Shown here: positions 24,381 through 32,711 of the stretch, one piece after another
Layout: the number at the start of each line of letters is the position of its first letter
How positions within the stretch are numbered: position 1 is the stretch's first letter
Assembly (NCBI GenBank): GCA_002281535.1
Contig: NCGD01000022.1
Coordinates: 1-41,151 of the forward strand
Direction of reading: 5' to 3'
From: Sphingomonas sp. 28-63-12
Lineage (GTDB): Bacteria; Pseudomonadota; Alphaproteobacteria; Sphingomonadales; Sphingomonadaceae
DNA: 41,151 nucleotides
Notes under the pieces: model-generated
What the model saw: only the letters and a program-made list of their open reading frames with translations
Told to the model about the DNA's origin: nothing
Database searches by the model: none
Translations under genes and position numbers: made by a program

Positions 24381-26165
24381 CTATCGCAGCGCTTCGACTT
24401 GTTCCGCCAATTCCAGCCAGCGTAATTCGGCCGCTTCCTTTTCGGCGCGCTCGCGCTCGATCGCGTTGGTCAGCGCCTGGAAGCGGGCAAAGTCGCGCGT
24501 ATAGAGCGTCGGATCCGCGAGCAGCGCCTCGTTGCGCTTGATTACGGTGTCGATCTCCTCGATCCGCTTGGGCAGCAGATCATATTCACGCTGGTCCTTA
24601 TAGCTCAGCTTGGCGCGCGCTGTCGGGGGCGGGGCTGATGCCGAAGATCCCTTCGATGCAACGGCGCGTTTCGGCGCGACCCGCTCGCTGCGCTGGCGTT
24701 CCCAGTCTTCATAGCCACCCGCCACGACATCGACATGGCCGCTGCCATCGAGCCCAAGGGTGATTGTAACGGTGCGATCGAGGAAATCGCGATCATGGCT
24801 GACGATCAGCACGGTGCCATCATAATCGCCGATGACTTCCTGCAGCAGATCGAGCGTTTCGAGATCGAGATCGTTGGTCGGCTCGTCGAGCACCAGAAGG
24901 TTCGACGGCCGCGCAAATTCGCGCGCCAGCAACAGCCGGGATCGTTCGCCGCCCGACAAGGTGGCGATCCGCGCCTCGGTCATATTGGGATCGAACAGGA
25001 ATTCCTTGAGATAGCCCTGGATGTGCTTTTTGACGCCCTGCACCTCGATCCACTCGCCGCCGTCGCACAACACGTCGCGGACCGTCTTTTCGGGTGACAT
25101 CAGGCTGCGCTGCTGATCGATGACGATGCCGTTGAGCGTCTTGGCCAGGCGGATATGGCCGCTATCGGGCGCGACCTCGCCGGTCAGCAGCTTGAGCAAG
25201 GTGGTCTTGCCGGCGCCGTTCTTGCCGACAATGCCGATCCGGTCGCCCCGCGTGACGCGCAGCGAGAGATTGTCGATAATCGTCCGGTCACCGAATGCCT
25301 TGCTGACAGCCTTGACGTCGATCACCGTCTTGGTGCGGACATCGTCGGTGCCAATCGACAGATTGGCGGCACCTTGCGGCCCCAGCATCGCGGCACGGGT
25401 GGCGCGCATTTCCTTCAGTTTGGCGAGCCGGCCCTGGTTGCGCCGCCGCCTGCCGGTAACGCCGCGCAGCAACCAATGTTCTTCGAGCTTGAGCTTGGCG
25501 TCCAGCCGTTCGGCATTGCGCGCCTCTTCGGCATAAACGGTCTCCGTCCAGGCTTCGAAGCCACCAAAGCCGATTTCGGCGCGGCGGATCGAACCCCGGT
25601 CGAGCCAAAGGGTTTGTTTGGTCAGTCGCGTGAGGAAAGTACGGTCATGGCTGATCACGACAAAGGCGCCGCGAAAACGGGCGAGCCAGTTTTCGAGCCA
25701 CTCGATCGCGGCGATGTCGAGATGATTGGTCGGCTCGTCAAGCAGCAGGACATCGGGGTCCTGCGCCAGCGCCCGGACGATCGCGGCGCGGCGGCGCTCG
25801 CCGCCTGAAGCGCTGGCAGCGTCGCGCGACAGGTCGATGCCAAGCTGATCGGCGATCGCTTCTGCCTCGTGTTTTTCGGGGGCATCGTCGCCGGCCATCA
25901 CGAAATCGGCCAATGTGGCGAAGCCGGTGACCTGTGGATCCTGTTCGAGCAGGATCACGCGGGTGCCGGGCACGATCGTGCGCCGGCCTTCGTCGGCGTC
26001 GATCCGGCCGCCGAGCAATTTCAGCAAGGTCGTCTTGCCGGCGCCGTTGCGCCCGATCAGCGCGAGCCGGTCGCGCGCGCCGATGTGAATATCGAGATCG
26101 CGAAAGAGCCAGCCCGAGCCCTGGACGAGGCCGAGATGTTCATATGCGAGGATTGGTGCTGCCAT
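24381..26165 (-). CDS. ABC-F family ATPase (Uup-like)
   Basis: A 594-residue soluble ATPase with two ABC domains and no membrane segments. Walker A motifs GRNGAGKTT and GKNGAGKTT, signatures SGGERRRAA and LSGGERSRLL, and Walker B LLLDEPTNHLD and LVLDEPTNDLD are present. A basic interdomain linker (about 220-290) and a C-terminal coiled coil (about 530-594) with PKRIEEIDTVIKRNEALL fit the Uup/Etta-type ABC-F proteins, which act on the ribosome or in recombination control. I choose ATG 26165 (MAAPILAYEHLGL); the longer frame to 26225 is less likely. Confidence 0.92.
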   Translation of the reverse strand: MAAPILAYEHLGLVQGSGWLFRDLDIHIGARDRLALIGRNGAGKTTLLKLLGGRIDADEGRRTIVPGTRVILLEQDPQVTGFATLADFVMAGDDAPEKHEAEAIADQLGIDLSRDAASASGGERRRAAIVRALAQDPDVLLLDEPTNHLDIAAIEWLENWLARFRGAFVVISHDRTFLTRLTKQTLWLDRGSIRRAEIGFGGFEAWTETVYAEEARNAERLDAKLKLEEHWLLRGVTGRRRRNQGRLAKLKEMRATRAAMLGPQGAANLSIGTDDVRTKTVIDVKAVSKAFGDRTIIDNLSLRVTRGDRIGIVGKNGAGKTTLLKLLTGEVAPDSGHIRLAKTLNGIVIDQQRSLMSPEKTVRDVLCDGGEWIEVQGVKKHIQGYLKEFLFDPNMTEARIATLSGGERSRLLLAREFARPSNLLVLDEPTNDLDLETLDLLQEVIGDYDGTVLIVSHDRDFLDRTVTITLGLDGSGHVDVVAGGYEDWERQRSERVAPKRAVASKGSSASAPPPTARAKLSYKDQREYDLLPKRIEEIDTVIKRNEALLADPTLYTRDFARFQALTNAIERERAEKEAAELRWLELAEQVEALR

Positions 26166-26246
26166 GTGGGAGCCGTTAGGGGTCTTGTTGCGGCGCGGCA
26201 AGTTTCTGTTGCCTGACAAGCGCATTCACAGGCTGTTCAAGCCGCG

Positions 26247-26567
26247 ATGGCTATGCCAACTTCCATGAACATGAAGTTTCCCCTCGCATTAGCCGCCTGT
26301 GCGGTGCTCGCGTCATGCGGCCACGCCCATGCCCAGCGGCGCGGCGATCAGATCGAAGTGTTGGTCCAGATGCGCAACGGGCGGCTGCTGCCGCTCCGTG
26401 AAATCGAGCGGCGGGTGCTGCCCACGATGGGTGGCGCGCAATATATCGGCTTTGATTTCGATTCGGACAGCGGGATTTACACGTTGAAGTTCCTGCGCAA
26501 TGGCGATGTGATCTGGGTCGATGTCGATGGCCGTTCTGGCCAGATCATCGGCCGGACCGGCAATTGA
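26247..26567 (+). CDS. exported PepSY-domain protein
   Basis: A 106-residue protein with an N-terminal signal (MKFPLALAACAVLASC), where LASC can be a lipobox and AHAQ a normal cleavage site. The rest is one PepSY domain (LREIERRVLPTMGG, then IYTLKFLRNGDVIWVDVDGRSGQIIG). PepSY proteins bind or inhibit peptidases and often sit next to OmpR-type two-component systems, as here. Start choice among ATGs at 26247, 26265 and 26271 is uncertain. It lies 38 bases upstream of the response regulator. Confidence 0.82.
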   Translation: MAMPTSMNMKFPLALAACAVLASCGHAHAQRRGDQIEVLVQMRNGRLLPLREIERRVLPTMGGAQYIGFDFDSDSGIYTLKFLRNGDVIWVDVDGRSGQIIGRTGN

Positions 26568-26605
26568 CCCGCGTCGCGGACGCGACCGAGCAGGGGGAAG
26601 AGATA

Positions 26606-27271
26606 ATGCGCGTTTTGATCGTCGAAGACGAGCCGAGCCTGGGCCAGCAGCTCAAGAACACGCTGGAAGGTGCAGGCTATGCCATCGATCTCGCCACGGA
26701 TGGCGAGGAAGGGCTCTTTCTCGGCCAGACCGAAAGCTATGACGCAGTGGTGCTCGATCTCGGTCTGCCCGAGATTGACGGGCTGACGGTGCTCGATCGC
26801 TGGCGCAAAGAGGGCAAGGTAATGCCCGTGCTGGTGCTCACCGCGCGCGACAGCTGGTCGGACAAGGTCGCCGGGCTCGATGCCGGTGCGGATGATTATG
26901 TCGCCAAGCCGTTCCAGTCGGAGGAGTTGATCGCCCGGCTGCGCGCGCTGATCCGCCGTGCATCGGGCAATGCGTCGTCCGAACTGACTGCTGGCGATAT
27001 CCGGCTCGACACCCGATCCGGCAAGGTTACCAAGGCCGGCGAACCCGTTAAGATGACCGCGCAGGAATATAAGTTGCTGAGCTATCTGCTGCACCACAAG
27101 GGCAAGGTCGTCAGTCGTACCGAGCTGATCGAACATATCTATGATCAGGATTTCGATCGCGATTCGAACACGATCGAAGTGTTTGTCACGCGGATCAGGA
27201 AAAAGCTCGGCCAGGACGTGATCACAACGATTCGCGGGCTCGGCTACAGTCTCGAAGACCCCGATGCCTAA
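26606..27271 (+). CDS. OmpR/PhoP-family response regulator
   Basis: A 221-residue DNA-binding response regulator. The receiver domain has E7/D8 in VLIVEDE, phospho-acceptor D51 in VVLDLGLP, T78-region LTARDSW and K in AKPF. A winged-helix effector domain (about 125-215) follows, with TAQEYKLLSYLL and VEVFVTRIRKKL. The pattern resembles PhoP of the PhoPQ pair. GGGGGAAGAG precedes ATG 26606. The kinase starts 59 bases downstream. Confidence 0.92.
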   Translation: MRVLIVEDEPSLGQQLKNTLEGAGYAIDLATDGEEGLFLGQTESYDAVVLDLGLPEIDGLTVLDRWRKEGKVMPVLVLTARDSWSDKVAGLDAGADDYVAKPFQSEELIARLRALIRRASGNASSELTAGDIRLDTRSGKVTKAGEPVKMTAQEYKLLSYLLHHKGKVVSRTELIEHIYDQDFDRDSNTIEVFVTRIRKKLGQDVITTIRGLGYSLEDPDA

Positions 27272-27330
27272 GACACCGGGCGGCCGCGCGATACCCGCTC
27301 CTGCGGGATGGACGACAAGAGGCTAGCCGC

Positions 27331-28734
27331 ATGGCCGACGCGCCTTCGCCCAGCGAGATTGCCGCCAGCGAGTCCCCCGGGCCGCAGCGCGCCATCACCC
27401 GCACCACCGGCTCGCTCAGCCGCAGGATGATCGTGATTGCCGCGGTGTGGATTACCGTGCTGCTGACCGGCGGCGGCTATGCGCTTGACCGGGTGCTGAC
27501 CAATGCGGTGACGCGCAGCTTTGACGATCAGCTCGAATATGTCCTCACCGCACTGATCGCCTCGGCTGAAATCGGGCCAGATAAAGAGGTGATCTTCAAC
27601 CGCGAGCCTGCAGATCAGCGCTTTCTGGAGGCCTATTCCGGTCTGTACTGGCAGGTCAGCGGCAAGCAGAGCGAGGACTTTCCCTCGCGGTCGCTGTGGG
27701 ATCGACGGCTGCGCTATGGCGGCAACCACCAGGATCTACGCATCCATATCTATGACAGCGACCAGTTTCCCGAAGAGAAATTGCGCGTGGTCGAGCGCGA
27801 TGCGCGGCTGCCGGGCTCCCCGGTGCGATGGCGCTTCCAGGTCGCAGGCAGCCGGGTGGGCCTCGACGAACAGATCAGGGCGCTGCGCCAGACGCTGTTG
27901 ATCAGCTTTGCCTTGCTCGCGCTCGGCTTGATCGGAATGGCGGGGTTGCAGGTCTATTACGGCCTGTCGCCGCTGCGCCGGCTGCGCGAGGAGATCGCCA
28001 AGATGCGGGCTGGCGAATCGCGCCAGATCGATCGCGCCATGCCGGTCGAGGTGGCGCCGATGGTGGAGGAGTTGAATGGCCTGATCGCGCATAATGAACG
28101 CCAGGCCGAAGAAGCGCGGCGCCATGCCGGCAACCTTGCCCATGCGCTGAAGACGCCGCTCACCGTCATCATGAACGCCGCGACCGCCAATGCCGATGAT
28201 CTCGGGCCGACGGTGATCCGCGAAGCGACAACGATGCGGCGTCAGGTCGATCATCACCTCGCGCGCGCGCGCGCGGTGGGCAGGCGGGGGAACGCGCATA
28301 GCCGCGCTGACGTCTGGCCAAGCCTCGAATCGGTCGAGCGCGCCGTCGGTCGGCTCTACAGCCATGTCCGCTTCGATCTCGATGGGCCCAAGGATCTGAA
28401 GGCACATGTCGAGCGCCAGGACCTTGACGAAATGCTCGGCAATCTCATCGAGAACGCCGCCAAATATGGCGGCGGCAGCGTGTTCGTGACGGTCAAGGCA
28501 CAGGCTGGCTTTGTCGAATTTCTGGTCGAGGATGACGGGCAGGGTATTCCCGAAAGCGAGCGGCTGCGGCTGTTCGATCGTGGCGCGCGGCTCGATACCG
28601 GCAAGCCGGGCACGGGGCTGGGGCTCGCGATCGTCCGCGATGTCGCCGAAATCTATGAAGGCACCGTCAGTCTGGAAGAGAGCGAGGATCTTGGTGGCTT
28701 GTTGGTGCGGTTGCGCCTGCCGGCGGCCAGCTGA
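27331..28734 (+). CDS. PhoQ-like sensor histidine kinase
   Basis: A 467-residue sensor kinase. Two transmembrane segments (about 33-54 and 187-207) bracket a periplasmic sensor domain, followed by a HAMP-like linker. The phosphotransfer site is H271 in NLAHALKTPLTV, with lysine rather than arginine in the usual HELRTPL pattern, as in PhoQ relatives. The ATPase domain has LGNLIENAAKYGGG, EDDGQGIPESE and GTGLGLAIVRDV. Its cognate partner is the adjacent regulator. It ends about 175 bases before the Reb operon. Confidence 0.92.
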   Translation: MADAPSPSEIAASESPGPQRAITRTTGSLSRRMIVIAAVWITVLLTGGGYALDRVLTNAVTRSFDDQLEYVLTALIASAEIGPDKEVIFNREPADQRFLEAYSGLYWQVSGKQSEDFPSRSLWDRRLRYGGNHQDLRIHIYDSDQFPEEKLRVVERDARLPGSPVRWRFQVAGSRVGLDEQIRALRQTLLISFALLALGLIGMAGLQVYYGLSPLRRLREEIAKMRAGESRQIDRAMPVEVAPMVEELNGLIAHNERQAEEARRHAGNLAHALKTPLTVIMNAATANADDLGPTVIREATTMRRQVDHHLARARAVGRRGNAHSRADVWPSLESVERAVGRLYSHVRFDLDGPKDLKAHVERQDLDEMLGNLIENAAKYGGGSVFVTVKAQAGFVEFLVEDDGQGIPESERLRLFDRGARLDTGKPGTGLGLAIVRDVAEIYEGTVSLEESEDLGGLLVRLRLPAAS

Positions 28735-28751
28735 ACGCAAGTCAGCCACAA

Positions 28752-28838
28752 TCAACGTTGACGTCCTTATTTGCGTTGACGGCTTTTTTACTGTGATATC
28801 GACGAAATATATGCCCAATTGCCGATTTTCATTTGACG
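28752..28838 (+). promoter_or_regulatory. three TTGACG boxes upstream of the Reb promoter
   Basis: TTGACG occurs at 28758-28763, 28776-28781 and 28833-28838. The first two are part of CGTTGACG repeats 18 bases apart, and TCAACGTTGA (28752-28761) is a perfect palindrome. They lie about -111, -93 and -36 from the predicted start, the usual distance for activator sites of sigma-54 promoters. The region between is AT-rich. Confidence 0.45.
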
Positions 28839-28841
28839 ATT

Positions 28842-28858
28842 TTGGCCGAAACGTTGCA
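28842..28858 (+). promoter_or_regulatory. sigma-54 promoter of the Reb operon
   Basis: TTGGCCGAAACGTTGCA has the invariant GG (28844-28845), exactly ten bases, then GC (28856-28857) inside TTGCA. Transcription should start near 28869, giving a leader of about 40 bases before the first Reb gene. It is the only good match I found in the intergenic spaces of this window. Confidence 0.6.
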
Positions 28859-28909
28859 TATTCTCTGCGGGCAGGTCGTTGACCGAAGCCGATCAGCAGG
28901 AGAGCGATG

Positions 28910-29194
28910 ATGGCGATTCCTACCCCTGTTAATGGACAGATCACCGATGCGATAACCCAGGCCAATGTGTCGGTGCTTGGGGATGCGCCGGCGATGGCGC
29001 TTGCCAGCCTCTATCAGGCGACGGCCCAGGCAATGGCCAATGCGGCGCACAACGCCACCAATGCACAGCAGCAATCCTATGTCACCGCGCAGGCAGCGAC
29101 GACGATGGGCGTGGCGACTCTCTATTCGATCGATTCGGCGGGTATCGGCGCCACGACCAGCGCCGTTCTCCACGATAAAGCGCCCGGCGTCTGA
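28910..29194 (+). CDS. rebB: RebB-family R-body protein 1
   Basis: A 94-residue structural protein of refractile bodies (killing-trait family). The conserved core QITDAITQANVSVLGDAPAM, LASLYQATAQAM and NAQQQSYV with ATTMGVATLYSI is intact. R-bodies are long protein ribbons coiled into a hollow roll that can unroll in response to pH in the Caedibacter prototype. AGGAGAG is followed by two ATGs; the second (28910) has the better spacing. First gene of a five-gene operon led by a sigma-54 promoter. Confidence 0.93.
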   Translation: MAIPTPVNGQITDAITQANVSVLGDAPAMALASLYQATAQAMANAAHNATNAQQQSYVTAQAATTMGVATLYSIDSAGIGATTSAVLHDKAPGV

Positions 29195-29206
29195 GGCCGG
29201 TCGGCA

Positions 29207-29428
29207 GTGGCAGAGTCCGCAGCGGAGGGCGTTGGCAGCGCCTTGCACCTGGCGCTTGGCAGCTTGTTTTCCGCAACCACGCTGGCGATGCAGCACGCCG
29301 CCGAAAATGCTGCCTTTGCCCAGCAGCAGAATAATCGGGTGGCGGCGGCGGCAACCGATGCCGGAATCAGAATCCTCAACGCCATTGCGGCACCGGCGGC
29401 CGACTCCGGCCGGAAGGAAGGGCAATGA
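29207..29428 (+). CDS. RebB-family protein 2, shortened
   Basis: A 73-residue paralog of the first Reb protein. It keeps LGSLFSATTLAMQHAAEN and AFAQQQNN but lacks the N-terminal QITDAITQ segment. The GTG start follows a GAGG box about nine bases upstream. It overlaps the next gene by four bases (ATGA). It may be a minor or accessory R-body component; a shortened member is unusual. Confidence 0.78.
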   Translation: MAESAAEGVGSALHLALGSLFSATTLAMQHAAENAAFAQQQNNRVAAAATDAGIRILNAIAAPAADSGRKEGQ

Positions 29429-29703
29429 CCCAGTCAACGATCAACGACCAGATCACCGATGCCGCGGCCGGCGCGGCGCTGCTCGCCGCTGGCCATGCAC
29501 CGGCGATTGCCTTTGCCATGCTCGATCTCGCCATGGCCGAAACCCTGGCGGCATCGATGCGCAACGCGGCCTTGCGCCAGCAATTGTCGAGCCTGTCGGC
29601 CTCCGCTGCGACGACGATGGTCTGCGCGCGTCTGCTGGGCGCACCTGTAACCGACATCGTACCGACCGAGCCGGGCGCGCCGAAAGGGGCCGATCATGGA
29701 TGA
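29425..29703 (+). CDS. RebB-family protein 3
   Basis: A 92-residue Reb paralog. INDQITDAAAGAALLAAGHAP aligns without gaps to the first protein, as does LAMAETLAASMRNAALRQQ and SAATTMVCARLL. Its sequence is more diverged from the RebB core than protein 1. It overlaps protein 2 by four bases and protein 4 by eight bases, so the four are probably cotranscribed and coupled. Confidence 0.85.
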   Translation: MTQSTINDQITDAAAGAALLAAGHAPAIAFAMLDLAMAETLAASMRNAALRQQLSSLSASAATTMVCARLLGAPVTDIVPTEPGAPKGADHG

Positions 29704-30079
29704 ATCCGTCGCTCCCGATCCATCGTGCGACGCTGACGCGATGGCGATCGATCCCGCGATCGTCGACGCCATCGCCCAGTTGCAGGCAGCAACGATGGGG
29801 CCGGACGCGGTGCGCACCAGCGCCGTCGGCAAGGCCTATCAGCTTGTCGCACAGTCGGCGGCGATTGCCGTGCTCGATGCGACCGACCATCTGCGCAATA
29901 GCGCAACGATCGCATCGACCGCGTCGGGCGTTGCCCTCGCCAATTTCATGACGACGGGCGACATCCGTTATGCCCAGGCGATCGTCATGGCGCAGGAATC
30001 GATGAAAGGCGCAGTCGCCGATTATCAGGCGATCGTCGCCGCCGCTGCGCGCACCGTGGCCGAGTTTCCATCGGGGTGA
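29696..30079 (+). CDS. RebB-family protein 4, long form
   Basis: A 127-residue protein. Its centre (IDPAIVDAIAQLQAATMGP, then VGKAYQLVAQSAAIAVLDAT and TIASTASGVALANFM) follows the Reb pattern. The family core is extended by an acidic N-terminal segment and a C-terminal helical part (VMAQESMKGAVADYQ). In known R-body loci, proteins of different size are all needed; this could be a regulator or capping subunit. ATG overlaps protein 3's end by eight bases. Confidence 0.82.
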   Translation: MDESVAPDPSCDADAMAIDPAIVDAIAQLQAATMGPDAVRTSAVGKAYQLVAQSAAIAVLDATDHLRNSATIASTASGVALANFMTTGDIRYAQAIVMAQESMKGAVADYQAIVAAAARTVAEFPSG

Positions 30080-30103
30080 GTGTCCCCGCTGCAGGAGAGC
30101 GTC

Positions 30104-30280
30104 ATGACCGACCATCCACCGCGACCCGCCAGAATGGCAAAAGCCGGCAAGGAAGCCCCGCCGGCCGATAAAGGTGCGCTGCAGCCCGTGTCGGAGGCCC
30201 ACCCCGAACAGGCGATGATCGACGCCGAAGCCGGCATGGCCGCGCTTGACCAGCATTTGGGTGGCTTGCTGATCAGCTGA
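30104..30280 (+). CDS. small protein of the Reb operon
   Basis: A 58-residue protein. The same GCAGGAGAGCG ribosome binding site as in front of the first Reb gene lies before ATG 30104, in place of the longer frame from 30080. The N-terminal half is basic and Pro-rich, and the C-terminal half is an acidic helix ending LGGLLIS. I see no known family. Its place and RBS suggest it belongs to the R-body operon. Confidence 0.6.
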   Translation: MTDHPPRPARMAKAGKEAPPADKGALQPVSEAHPEQAMIDAEAGMAALDQHLGGLLIS

Positions 30281-30355
30281 TCTGTGGATGTTGCGGGACG
30301 CCCATAAAATTTGTTGGTGCGGAAGCGATAGTCGGTTGCAGACCGACCCCACCGT

Positions 30356-30449
30356 GCGTCACGCCGGACTTGCGCCCGGGCCTATGGGGCCTCAATTGAC
30401 TCGCCGGCGGGTGGAGAGGTGGACCCCGGCGCCCGTTCAAGGGTGACGC
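30356..30449. repeat. REP-like palindromic element 1
   Basis: A 94-bp element bounded by perfect 7-bp inverted ends GCGTCAC and GTGACGC, with GC-rich arms (GCCGGACTTGCGCCCGGG and CCCCGGCGCCCGTTCAAGGG). This looks like the short palindromic repeats common in intergenic DNA of sphingomonads. It occurs once in this window. Confidence 0.5.
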
Positions 30450-30491
30450 GCAGAATAAGTGCCAGCTGATGCCCCGATTGCGTTGAAGAAG

Positions 30492-30545
30492 TTGCGCCCC
30501 CGCGAAGCTGGGAGCCCAGTCTGGGTCCCCGCCTTCGCGGTGACA
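30492..30545. repeat. REP-like palindromic element 2
   Basis: CGCGAAG at 30501 pairs with CTTCGCG at 30533-30539, and GGGAGCCCAG with CTGGGTCCCC, giving a long GC-rich hairpin around 30520. It is a second, unrelated palindrome beside element 1. Confidence 0.55.
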
Positions 30546-30696
30546 CCGGCGATTGTGTACAGACCGCTTCCCACGCACGCTCAGTCTTTCCCAGATGCGC
30601 GAGCCCATCGTCGAGTTCCACGAAGCGCGGCTTCGTAACCTTGCCGACCGCTCCGCCGAAAACCAGCTATGGCCGCTTTGGCAAGGGACACAATTA

Positions 30697-31395
30697 ATGG
30701 CAGGCAAGGACAGGGCACCCCCCGGCGTGAGCCGGCGCGAACTGATGATCGCGGCGGCGGTAGCGGGCGTGCTGCCAGCCGGTGCGGTCCGGGCGGCGCT
30801 GCCGGTTGGCTGGCGCGAACTCGGCTTTCCCTTGCTGCGCGCCAACAGATTTGACGATATCGGCGGCGGCGTCATCCAGATCGATGGCAAGCGCGCATCG
30901 TCGATCCTTTATCGCCCCATCGCGATCGATCTTGGCAAGACACCGCGGTTGAGCTGGCGCTGGCGGGTCGATAGCGGCCCGCCCGCCACTGATCTGGCGA
31001 TCCGCGGCACCGATGATCGCGCGCTTGCGGTGATCATCGGCTTTCCATTCGATCCGGCCACCGCGAATGCGGCCGAGCGCAGCCAGCACCGTGCGATGCG
31101 CTTTCTGCTGGGGCGCGCGGCGCCTGGACGCAGCCTCCATTATGTCTGGGGCAGCGGCTTGCCGCGCGGCAGCGTGATCCGCCCGGCCAAAACCACCGCG
31201 CACCGTTTCGTCATCCTGCGTCCGGCAAGCGAGCTCCCGGGCATGTGGCACACCGAGAGCGTCGATGTCGCTGCCGATTATCGTCGAATCTTTGGCGAAT
31301 CGCCGCCGCGCGCGGTCCAGCTAGCGATCTCCAGCGATGGCGATGACACTGGTTCGATCGTTCATGCCGCAATCGGCGGCTTTAGGTGGGATTGA
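30697..31395 (+). CDS. Tat-exported DUF3047 protein
   Basis: A 232-residue protein. The N-terminus has SRRELM followed by a hydrophobic stretch ending AGAVRA, a twin-arginine (Tat) signal. The mature part is a DUF3047-type domain with the segment PRLSWRWRVDSGPPATDLAIRG and WHTESVDVAADYRRIFGE. Function is unknown. AAGGGAC precedes ATG 30697; the frame is open farther upstream but lacks a signal and start site. Confidence 0.85.
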   Translation: MAGKDRAPPGVSRRELMIAAAVAGVLPAGAVRAALPVGWRELGFPLLRANRFDDIGGGVIQIDGKRASSILYRPIAIDLGKTPRLSWRWRVDSGPPATDLAIRGTDDRALAVIIGFPFDPATANAAERSQHRAMRFLLGRAAPGRSLHYVWGSGLPRGSVIRPAKTTAHRFVILRPASELPGMWHTESVDVAADYRRIFGESPPRAVQLAISSDGDDTGSIVHAAIGGFRWD

Positions 31396-31484
31396 GGCGG
31401 AAGCGGCGAAAGATCATTTCCAAAATCGCCCCAAAAGGCGTAATATTCTGCCAGCGACTCGGCCCGAATTTTTTTCTGGGAGTG

Positions 31485-31700
31485 ATGTCCGTGCAGACAA
31501 GCAAAGACCGGCAATATCTCCGGCAGCGGGCGCTGCAGGAGCGCGACATGTCCACCCGGGCAGCCTGTGTTGAAGCCGCTGTCGCGCATGACATGCTCGA
31601 ACATTATTATGTCGAGGCGTGCGCGATGTGCGAGCATGGCCGCACCCAGGAATGCACTGACTGCGAGATGCAGGCGCGGTGCGAGATCGCCACGCAATAG
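31485..31700 (+). CDS. small Cys-rich DRQY-type protein
   Basis: A 71-residue protein. Its N-terminal half (DRQYLRQRALQERDMS) matches a small protein type I know from sphingomonads. The C-terminal half has ACAMCEHGRTQECTDC with two CxxC pairs and a further Cys, like a zinc-binding fold. ATG 31485 is preceded by GGGAG three bases away; ATG 31548 has a better AGGAG box but would remove the conserved part. Function unknown. Confidence 0.6.
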   Translation: MSVQTSKDRQYLRQRALQERDMSTRAACVEAAVAHDMLEHYYVEACAMCEHGRTQECTDCEMQARCEIATQ

Positions 31701-31712
31701 CCGCCAGGCCGG

Positions 31713-32711
31713 CTACGCTGCGGCCTGCAGCTCACGCATCGCGCCGGCGGCGATCGACAGACTGTGTTTGCGTGCGGCATGATCATAGATTGAGCTGGTC
31801 AGCATTAATTCGTCTGCCCCGGTCCGCGCAATAAAGGCGCTGATCGCGCGCGCTACCTTGGTCGGGCCGCCCACCGCCGAACATTGCAGGACATGATCAA
31901 GGGTTGCTGCACCTTGGGCCCCCAGGCTGGCGCGATAGCCGGCGACCGGTGGCGGCAGCTGGCGTGGATTGCCGGTGCGCAGCGCAACGAAAGCTTGTTG
32001 CTGTGAGCTGGCAAGATATTCGGCTTCCTCGTCGCTATCGGCGCCGAACACATTGAACCCGGCCATGAAATGCGGCCTGGCAAGGGCGGCAGAAGGCCGG
32101 AACTGGCGGCGGTAAATCGCGGCTGCCTGGTCGAGCGCGTCCGGCGCGAAATGCGAGGCAAAGGCATAGGGCAGGCCGAGCGCGGCGGCGAGCTGCGCGC
32201 CGAAGGTGCTTGAACCGAGAATCCAGATATTGACCTTCGCGCCCGCACCCGGGGTAGCGCGGATTCCCGTCTGGCCGTCATCGGCAAAATAGCTTTGCAG
32301 CTCGAGCACGTCCTGGGGGAACGCGTTGGCGTCGGTCTCCAAAGTCCGCCGCAGTGCGCGCGCGACCTTCATGTCCGATCCCGGCGCTCGGCCGAGGCCC
32401 AGGTCGATCCGGCCCGGAAACAGCGCATCAAGTGTCCCGAATTGTTCGGCGATCACCAGCGGGGCATGATTGGGCAGCATGATGCCGCCGGCACCGACCC
32501 GGATGTGGCGGGTCGCGGCCGCGACATGGCCGATCACCACGGAAGTCGCGCCGCCCGCGATGCCTGCCATGCCGTGATGCTCGGCGATCCAATAGCGGCT
32601 AAAGCCAAGTGTTTCGGCATGGCGCGCCAGATCGGCGGCATTGGCAAAGGCCTGAGCGAGGGTGCCGCCTTCGACGACGGGGACAAGATCGAGCAGAGAA
32701 TAAGCGGTCAT
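31713..32711 (-). CDS. LLM-class flavin-dependent oxidoreductase
   Basis: A 332-residue luciferase-like monooxygenase with a TIM-barrel fold that uses reduced [59 protein letters not shown] and [11 protein letters not shown] are typical of the MsnO8-type family. The substrate is unknown. The start at ATG 32711 (MTAYSLLD) has a GAGAGG run one base upstream; the open frame reaches 32888 but overlaps the next gene. Confidence 0.88.

What the first reader, a model, noticed from the sequence alone, without database searches (positions are those of the whole stretch)
28910..30280. R-body (refractile body) operon in a sphingomonad-like genome
Four RebB-family proteins of different length (94, 73, 92 and 127 residues) and one small protein lie in a tight, overlapping operon. 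Gapless resemblance of proteins 1 and 3 (QITDA...GDAPA / QITDA...GHAPA) and of 1 and 2 (NAQQQ / FAQQQ) shows they are paralogs. R-bodies are known from Caedibacter as coiled ribbons linked to paramecium killing, and homologs occur in other proteobacteria, where their role is mostly unexplained. The divergence of the four copies suggests distinct structural parts.
Basis: partly seen in the sequence, partly recalled or inferred. Interest (0 to 1): 0.85.

Follow-up and report, generated by a model that had tools for sequence, protein, structure and literature searches.

The report
Stripped-down R-body operon in Sphingomonas
A Sphingomonas bacterium carries a shortened set of genes for R-bodies, coiled protein ribbons that some bacteria use against the cells that host or eat them; the kind is known, but this copy has one main ribbon gene where most relatives have three or four, so it could show how little is needed to build one.

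Summary
The operon is real and the R-body reading is right in kind. Proteins 1, 2 and 3 pass Pfam RebB (99, 30.8, 51.7 bits). Protein 4 does not, but belongs to a 110-120 aa family that in this genus occurs only in RebB carriers (11 of 295 genomes), and profile comparison makes it a distant Reb relative. Protein 5 is an orphan. The commonest order in relatives is three or four primary Rebs, a small Reb, a Reb with a proline-rich tail, the protein 4 family, then a ~356 aa protein, HP1.1. The window keeps the order but has one primary Reb, no tail, and no HP1.1 found in its genome. RebB occurs in 16 of 295 genomes of the genus; the flanks differ from those of the other 15, and close relatives show the site without it. 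Other Sphingomonas clusters are contracted in other ways, one apparently broken. Protein 1 shows ordinary constraint, proteins 3 and 4 less. Most likely it makes a simplified ribbon; decay is the serious rival. No ribbon has been observed. Verdict: new variant of a known kind.

The parts
28833..28862 (+). sigma-70-like promoter site in front of the operon (weak)
   Evidence: TTGACG-18-CATATT, 9 of 12; 1 found in 28600-30700 against 0.6 expected in shuffles, so not significant alone
28907..29194 (+). P1: the only full primary Reb, with QITD and QQQ; likely main ribbon subunit
   Evidence: Pfam RebB 99 bits, E 1.6e-28; predicted as one long helix, pLDDT 82, pTM 0.39; S in place of the K of KxxxD/E
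29207..29428 (+). P2: half-length Reb without the QITD region, in the place of the small Reb (S1/HP1.4-like) gene
   Evidence: RebB 30.8 bits; primary profile 38.0 bits, small-Reb profile 17.2 bits
29425..29703 (+). P3: Reb of the S2/HP1.3-like class, with QITD, without the proline-rich tail
   Evidence: RebB 51.7 bits; S2-type profile 115 bits; keeps 16 of 18 well-conserved columns
29696..30079 (+). P4: member of a reb-linked family of about 116 aa (S3/HP1.2-like), distant Reb relative
   Evidence: No Pfam hit; relatives to E 1.6e-32; profile comparison with primary Rebs score 39.7 against at most 21.5 in 100 shuffles
30080..30280 (+). P5: small orphan frame (58 aa from ATG 30104), where HP1.1 stands in relatives
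   Evidence: No family hit; not similar to the P3-type tail or HP1.1 beyond shuffles; weak hits only in the genus
28735..31395 (+). block present here and missing in relatives: reb operon plus a DUF3047 gene (30553-31395)
   Evidence: Flanking kinase and luciferase-like genes lie together without it in 7 of 12 relatives fetched; DUF3047 not in other reb loci

Best explanation
This is a contracted 'group 1' reb operon, probably acquired by horizontal transfer into the gap between a core sensor kinase gene and a luciferase-like gene. Shown: the gene classes, their order, the missing parts, the patchy spread, the site without it in relatives. Inferred: P1, predicted as one long helix, is the main subunit of a protein ribbon that coils inside the cell; P3 and half-length P2 are co-subunits; P4 is an assembly-associated Reb-like protein. 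As in studied R-bodies the coil would unroll when conditions change (for example acid in a grazer's food vacuole; recalled, not from a call) and breach membranes. Without HP1.1 the ribbon may differ in size or lack a partner needed for killing. That it is a reb operon is near certain (about 0.97); that it still makes a ribbon-like polymer is the committed, unproven step, and the confidence given is for that.
For: RebB matches for P1-P3. Same gene order as clusters in many bacteria. P4 family in 11 of 295 genus genomes, all among the 16 RebB carriers, and a distant Reb relative. All frames intact, with gene-like composition. P1 under ordinary constraint: ratio of codon-position 1+2 to position 3 differences 0.39, against 0.42 in complete clusters. 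P3 keeps 16 of 18 well-conserved columns. A P3-type protein of 90 aa occurs in an otherwise complete cluster (L077), so loss of the tail is not in itself decay.
Against: Only one full primary Reb, whereas the systems described in the papers read used at least two: RebA+RebB+RebC in Caedibacter (PMC3583457), three of four Rebs plus AZC_3784 in Azorhizobium (PMC5527310), rebP1P2 (deleted together) in PA14 (PMC8322103). HP1.1 not found in the genome (genome about 95% complete). P1 and P4 keep fewer well-conserved columns than most relatives: only 2 of 27 and 1 of 43 rows are lower. P4 evolves faster than in complete clusters (0.61 against 0.47), and window-private changes at codon positions 1+2 exceed every control used for P1, P3 and P4. 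P1 lacks the K of the KxxxD/E motif. No expression or microscopy data.
Confidence: 0.58

Rival explanations
1. A decaying remnant: a full group 1 cluster was acquired, HP1.1 and two or three primary Rebs were lost, and what is left no longer forms R-bodies.
For: Missing parts; long branch of P4 in its tree (1.41 against a median of 0.075); private changes above all controls; in the same genus one cluster looks broken (G513) and lone Rebs occur; contracted G230/G599 genes have dN/dS 0.46-0.70 against 0.03-0.15 in a complete pair.
Against: Five open frames with tight spacing and start signals before several of them; P1 constraint ordinary; P3 well conserved in its class.
Confidence: 0.28
2. A repurposed cluster: the Reb-like helices form short filaments or a small complex with some other role, not a coiled R-body.
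For: One primary Reb, altered KxxxD/E motif, faster P4 and P3, and a two-gene form with a Reb-half/P4-domain fusion in two related genomes that has stayed open.
Against: P1 keeps QITD, QQQ and ordinary constraint; no evidence for any other function was found.
Confidence: 0.12
3. Chance resemblance of alanine-rich helical frames to RebB.
For: The proteins are short and alanine-rich; P4 and P5 have no Pfam hit.
Against: E-values to 1.6e-28, exact motifs, and the gene order shared with many genomes.
Confidence: 0.01

Closest known systems
Group 1 reb clusters (Raymann et al. 2013: Rebs with HP1.1-HP1.4; Dorr et al. 2026: group 1 with S1-S3)
   Same: Primary Reb of the same type, a small Reb, an S2/HP1.3-like Reb, and a P4 relative, in the same order. 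The mapping onto the papers' labels is mine, from sizes, order and the motifs they describe; their seed sequences were not compared.
   Different: One full primary Reb (3 or more in 67 of 78 clusters compared), no proline-rich tail on P3, no HP1.1 (missing in 8 of 78), and an orphan frame in its place.
Caedibacter taeniospiralis R-body genes (pKAP298)
   Same: RebB-family proteins; P1 is 46.5% identical to one of them over 75% of its length, and the P4 profile weakly reaches them.
   Different: No P4-type or HP1.1-type gene scored there among the frames tested; different gene order.
Azorhizobium caulinodans and Pseudomonas PA14 reb operons
   Same: RebB-family operons in bacteria that are not Paramecium symbionts; R-bodies shown in the cited papers.
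   Different: Dedicated regulators (RebR, PraR; RcgA, FecI2) are described there; none was found next to this operon. Their sequences were not fetched.

Membership tests
RebB family (PF11747) | Score above Pfam's curated cut-off (24 bits) | tested here: met
   P1 99, P2 30.8, P3 51.7 bits; P4 and P5 none
RebB family, primary type | QITD and QQQ motifs | tested here: met
   P1 has both; P2 QQQ only; P3 QITD and QQ; P4 neither
RebB family, primary type | KxxxD/E motif in domain 1 (PMC13430693) | tested here: not met
   P1 has S...D; K...D/E in 24 of 27 aligned relatives. Not universal: 180 of 279 distinct primary frames by a rough pattern
Group 1 reb cluster | HP1.2-, HP1.3- and HP1.4-type genes beside the Rebs | tested here: met
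   P4, P3 and (weakly) P2; label mapping by size and order
Group 1 reb cluster | HP1.1 (~360 aa) in the cluster | tested here: not met
   Absent from the window and not found in the genome; strong matches in 7 of 16 RebB-carrying genomes searched, of which 4 supplied rows to the profile
Functional R-body operon | At least two different full primary Rebs, as in the systems of the papers read | tested here: not met
   One full primary Reb. That two are needed in group 1 clusters is not itself established
R-body | SDS-resistant coiled ribbon that extends | not testable with these tools
   Needs expression and electron microscopy

The most novel reading that the evidence does not exclude
A natural minimal R-body: one primary Reb with two short Rebs and one distant Reb (P4) builds a working ribbon without HP1.1. 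Sphingomonas would then be a genus in which R-body clusters are cut down step by step and kept in use, which would separate the genes needed to build the ribbon from those needed for its other effects.
Probability: 0.3. Interest if true: 0.62.

Novelty: new variant of a known kind. Interest (0 to 1): 0.4.

Why it matters
Which Reb proteins build the ribbon and what the conserved partners do is still open; the 2013 survey names taxa with only one reb copy as targets for study (PMC3583457, passage) and the 2026 survey leaves the role of the 'secondary' Rebs unsettled (PMC13430693). A natural cluster with one primary Reb, and relatives in one genus contracted in other ways, makes a ready comparison set. 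The evidence that the P4 family is a distant Reb protein gives it a likely place in the system. The search 'R-bodies' + 'Sphingomonas' found no paper, and 'sphingo' does not occur in the main text of either survey; their supplements were not read.

Tried and rejected
P5 as the detached tail of P3: the tail profile gives 3.3 bits and 49 of 200 shuffles do as well or better; the HP1.1, P4-type and P3-type profiles also give nothing. P5 relatives in the genus: 3 weak hits in 294 other genomes (E 0.0016-0.0074), in long frames, taken as chance. A link to the upstream two-component genes: the kinase is in 23 of 24 other same-genus genomes searched, none of which had RebB, so it is core. DUF3047 as a partner: not in the other reb loci held then. 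Phage carriage: no tblastn match of P1 in 50,697 phage records; one 159 kb viral contig with a 28% relative; P1 does match PHROG 32040, function unknown. RNA families at 26000-32000: none. PDB by sequence: nothing convincing (best E 0.039 and 0.0051). Fold search with the P4 model: no match at E <= 0.001. A P4-family tree to find the donor: poorly resolved; nearest by path to Azospirillum, in no starred group. The EspG hit of P3 (E 0.042) taken as chance.

Full report
What is there. Five frames on the + strand run from 28907 to 30280. P1-P2 are 12 nt apart, P2-P3 overlap by 4 nt and P3-P4 by 8 nt. Third-position G+C is 0.72-0.77 in all five. Own-frame codon usage beats the other two + frames in each; a reverse frame scores higher for P2 and P5. 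Pfam RebB is passed by P1, P2 and P3, not by P4 or P5; NCBIfam has nothing. The genome holds no other RebB match.

P4. P4 has relatives in 71 of the 79 named reb loci, to E 1.6e-32. In the genus its relatives occur in 11 of 295 genomes, and all 11 are among the 16 with RebB. Profile comparison of 44 P4-type proteins with 28 primary Rebs gives probability 88.7 and score 39.7; 100 column-shuffled versions reach at most 21.5, a reversed one 9.5, the HP1.1 alignment 12.1. In a class-wide search the P4 profile matched 12 of 385 genomes: 11 matches lie in reb clusters, 4 of them on QITD-bearing primary Rebs, and the twelfth is a fragment with no Reb neighbour in the 3.2 kb seen. So P4 is a distant Reb protein that Pfam does not reach. 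Its predicted structure has three helices, pLDDT 91.

Comparison set. One scan for P1 relatives in named genomes gave 79 loci (203 stretches passed, the best 80 were kept), so clusters with P1-like genes are favoured. The usual order in them is primary Rebs, small Reb, tailed Reb, P4 type, HP1.1; some, such as the Pedobacter and Desulfatibacillum loci, have another order. With 15 genus loci and the window added and 4 duplicates removed, 78 clusters hold a P4-type gene. Full primary Rebs (90 bits or more) per cluster: 0 in 2, 1 in 2, 2 in 7, 3 in 14, 4 in 44, 6 in 4, 7 in 4, 11 in 1. Those with at most one are the window, L056, G230 and G599. HP1.1 is missing in 8 of 78: window, L034 (its locus ends 130 bases after the P4-type gene), L095, L100, G230, G513, G599, G635. 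A search of the 16 RebB-carrying genomes of the genus found HP1.1 strongly in 7 (G310, G472, G473, G554, G579, G581 and, far from its lone Reb, G403), weakly in G513 (E 0.055, taken as chance), and not in the other 8, the window's included; four of the seven supplied rows to the profile.

The genus series. The other 15 RebB carriers range from full sets (G579, G581), through two or three primaries with HP1.1 (G310, G472, G473, G554) and two primaries without it (G635; G513, where the second primary loses its match part-way and looks broken), to a two-gene form with a half Reb and a fusion of a Reb half with a P4-type domain (G230, G599) and lone, partly partial Rebs (G380, G403, G474, G609, G620). 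The window stands in the middle. In G230 and G599 the flanks are 81-83% identical in DNA, yet the two small genes share 18 of 67 and 86 of 191 residues, dN/dS 0.46-0.70; in the complete pair G472/G473 the P4-type gene has 0.03-0.08 and HP1.1 0.09-0.15. One contracted pair is thus less constrained than one complete pair, but its frames are open.

Selection on the window genes. The ratio of codon-position 1+2 to position-3 differences is 0.39 for P1 (12 pairs) against 0.42 in complete clusters (55 pairs), and 0.61 for P4 (13 pairs) against 0.47 (55 pairs), in a set that I chose; pairs are not independent and third positions are near saturation. Window-private changes at positions 1+2, at sites invariant in the three or four relatives used, are 13 of 148 for P1, 24 of 143 for P4 and 36 of 126 for P3, above every control. 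P1 keeps 35 of 41 well-conserved columns (2 of 27 rows lower) and P4 20 of 24 (1 of 43 lower); P3 keeps 16 of 18 (20 of 60 lower) (the P3 line belonged to another row and is not used). P1 has S for the K of the KxxxD/E motif. P1 is thus constrained much as usual, if somewhat diverged; P3 and P4 are more diverged.

Origin. RebB is in 16 of 396 genomes drawn from the order and in 16 of 295 of the genus. None of the window's flanking genes tested is found in the 15 other genus reb loci (9 to 11 kb each). The upstream kinase and the downstream luciferase-like gene lie together without reb in 7 of 12 relatives fetched, about 46, 138 and 170 bases apart (between alignment ends) in three; in 5 of 12 the luciferase-like gene was not found in the stretch. 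G019, the closest by kinase sequence, has other sequence in the gap. The reb operon with its DUF3047 neighbour is therefore an insertion in the window's lineage or was lost in the others; transfer is my inference from the patchy spread. DUF3047 has relatives in 5 of 61 genomes searched, in this genus only in the window's own. No dedicated search for integrases was made.

Mechanism. According to the papers: RebA, B and C of Caedibacter suffice for R-bodies in E. coli but not for killing (PMC3583457; abstract, two sections, passages); in Azorhizobium three of four Rebs plus AZC_3784 are needed (PMC5527310; abstract, two sections); in PA14 rebP1P2 is needed and RapA is found with R-bodies (PMC8322103; abstract, one section, passages); groups and motifs come from PMC13430693 (abstract, Results, first part of the Discussion). 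From this I infer P1 as main ribbon subunit, P3 and P2 as co-subunits, P4 as an assembly-associated Reb-like protein. Whether one primary Reb is enough is the open step; I give 0.58 that a ribbon-like polymer is still made.

Verdict. What deserves follow-up is the contraction: one primary Reb, no HP1.1, in a genus where several stages of contraction coexist.

Noticed in passing
L135:4122-4909 (G230) and L146:4034-4949 (G599): At one shared locus (flanks 81-83% identical) two Sphingomonas genomes carry a two-gene reb cluster: a half Reb and a fusion of a Reb half with a P4-type domain; the genes diverge far faster than the flanks.
   Followed up: partly
L140:4877-5179 (G513): The second primary Reb loses its match part-way and ends in an unrelated arginine-rich stretch, as if frameshifted; described only.
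   Followed up: no
L220:1501-2562 (G403): An intact HP1.1 relative (353 aa) lies over 300 kb from the genome's one partial Reb.
   Followed up: no
L229:1492-2070 and L230:1198-1836: Reb clusters of other alphaproteobacteria have a P4-type domain behind a long low-complexity N-terminal stretch, much as the 2026 survey describes group S4 (not compared with its sequences).
   Followed up: no
G099 C20:67914-72769 and G114 C42:36572-41311: Two genomes of another family in the order have 11 RebB matches each in one 5 kb cluster.
   Followed up: no
window 28735-31712: The gap between the sensor kinase and the luciferase-like gene varies in content: reb plus DUF3047 here, a 493-aa frame on the other strand in G019 (not identified by a call), nearly nothing in G006, G003 and G021.
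   Followed up: partly
window 28756-28781 and 28833-28838: GTTGACG twice, 20 bases apart, in a terminator-like hairpin, and TTGACG again in the promoter-like site before P1.
   Followed up: no
L241 (IMGVR_UViG_3300031541_000012): A 159 kb viral contig encodes a distant Reb relative, 28% identity.
   Followed up: no
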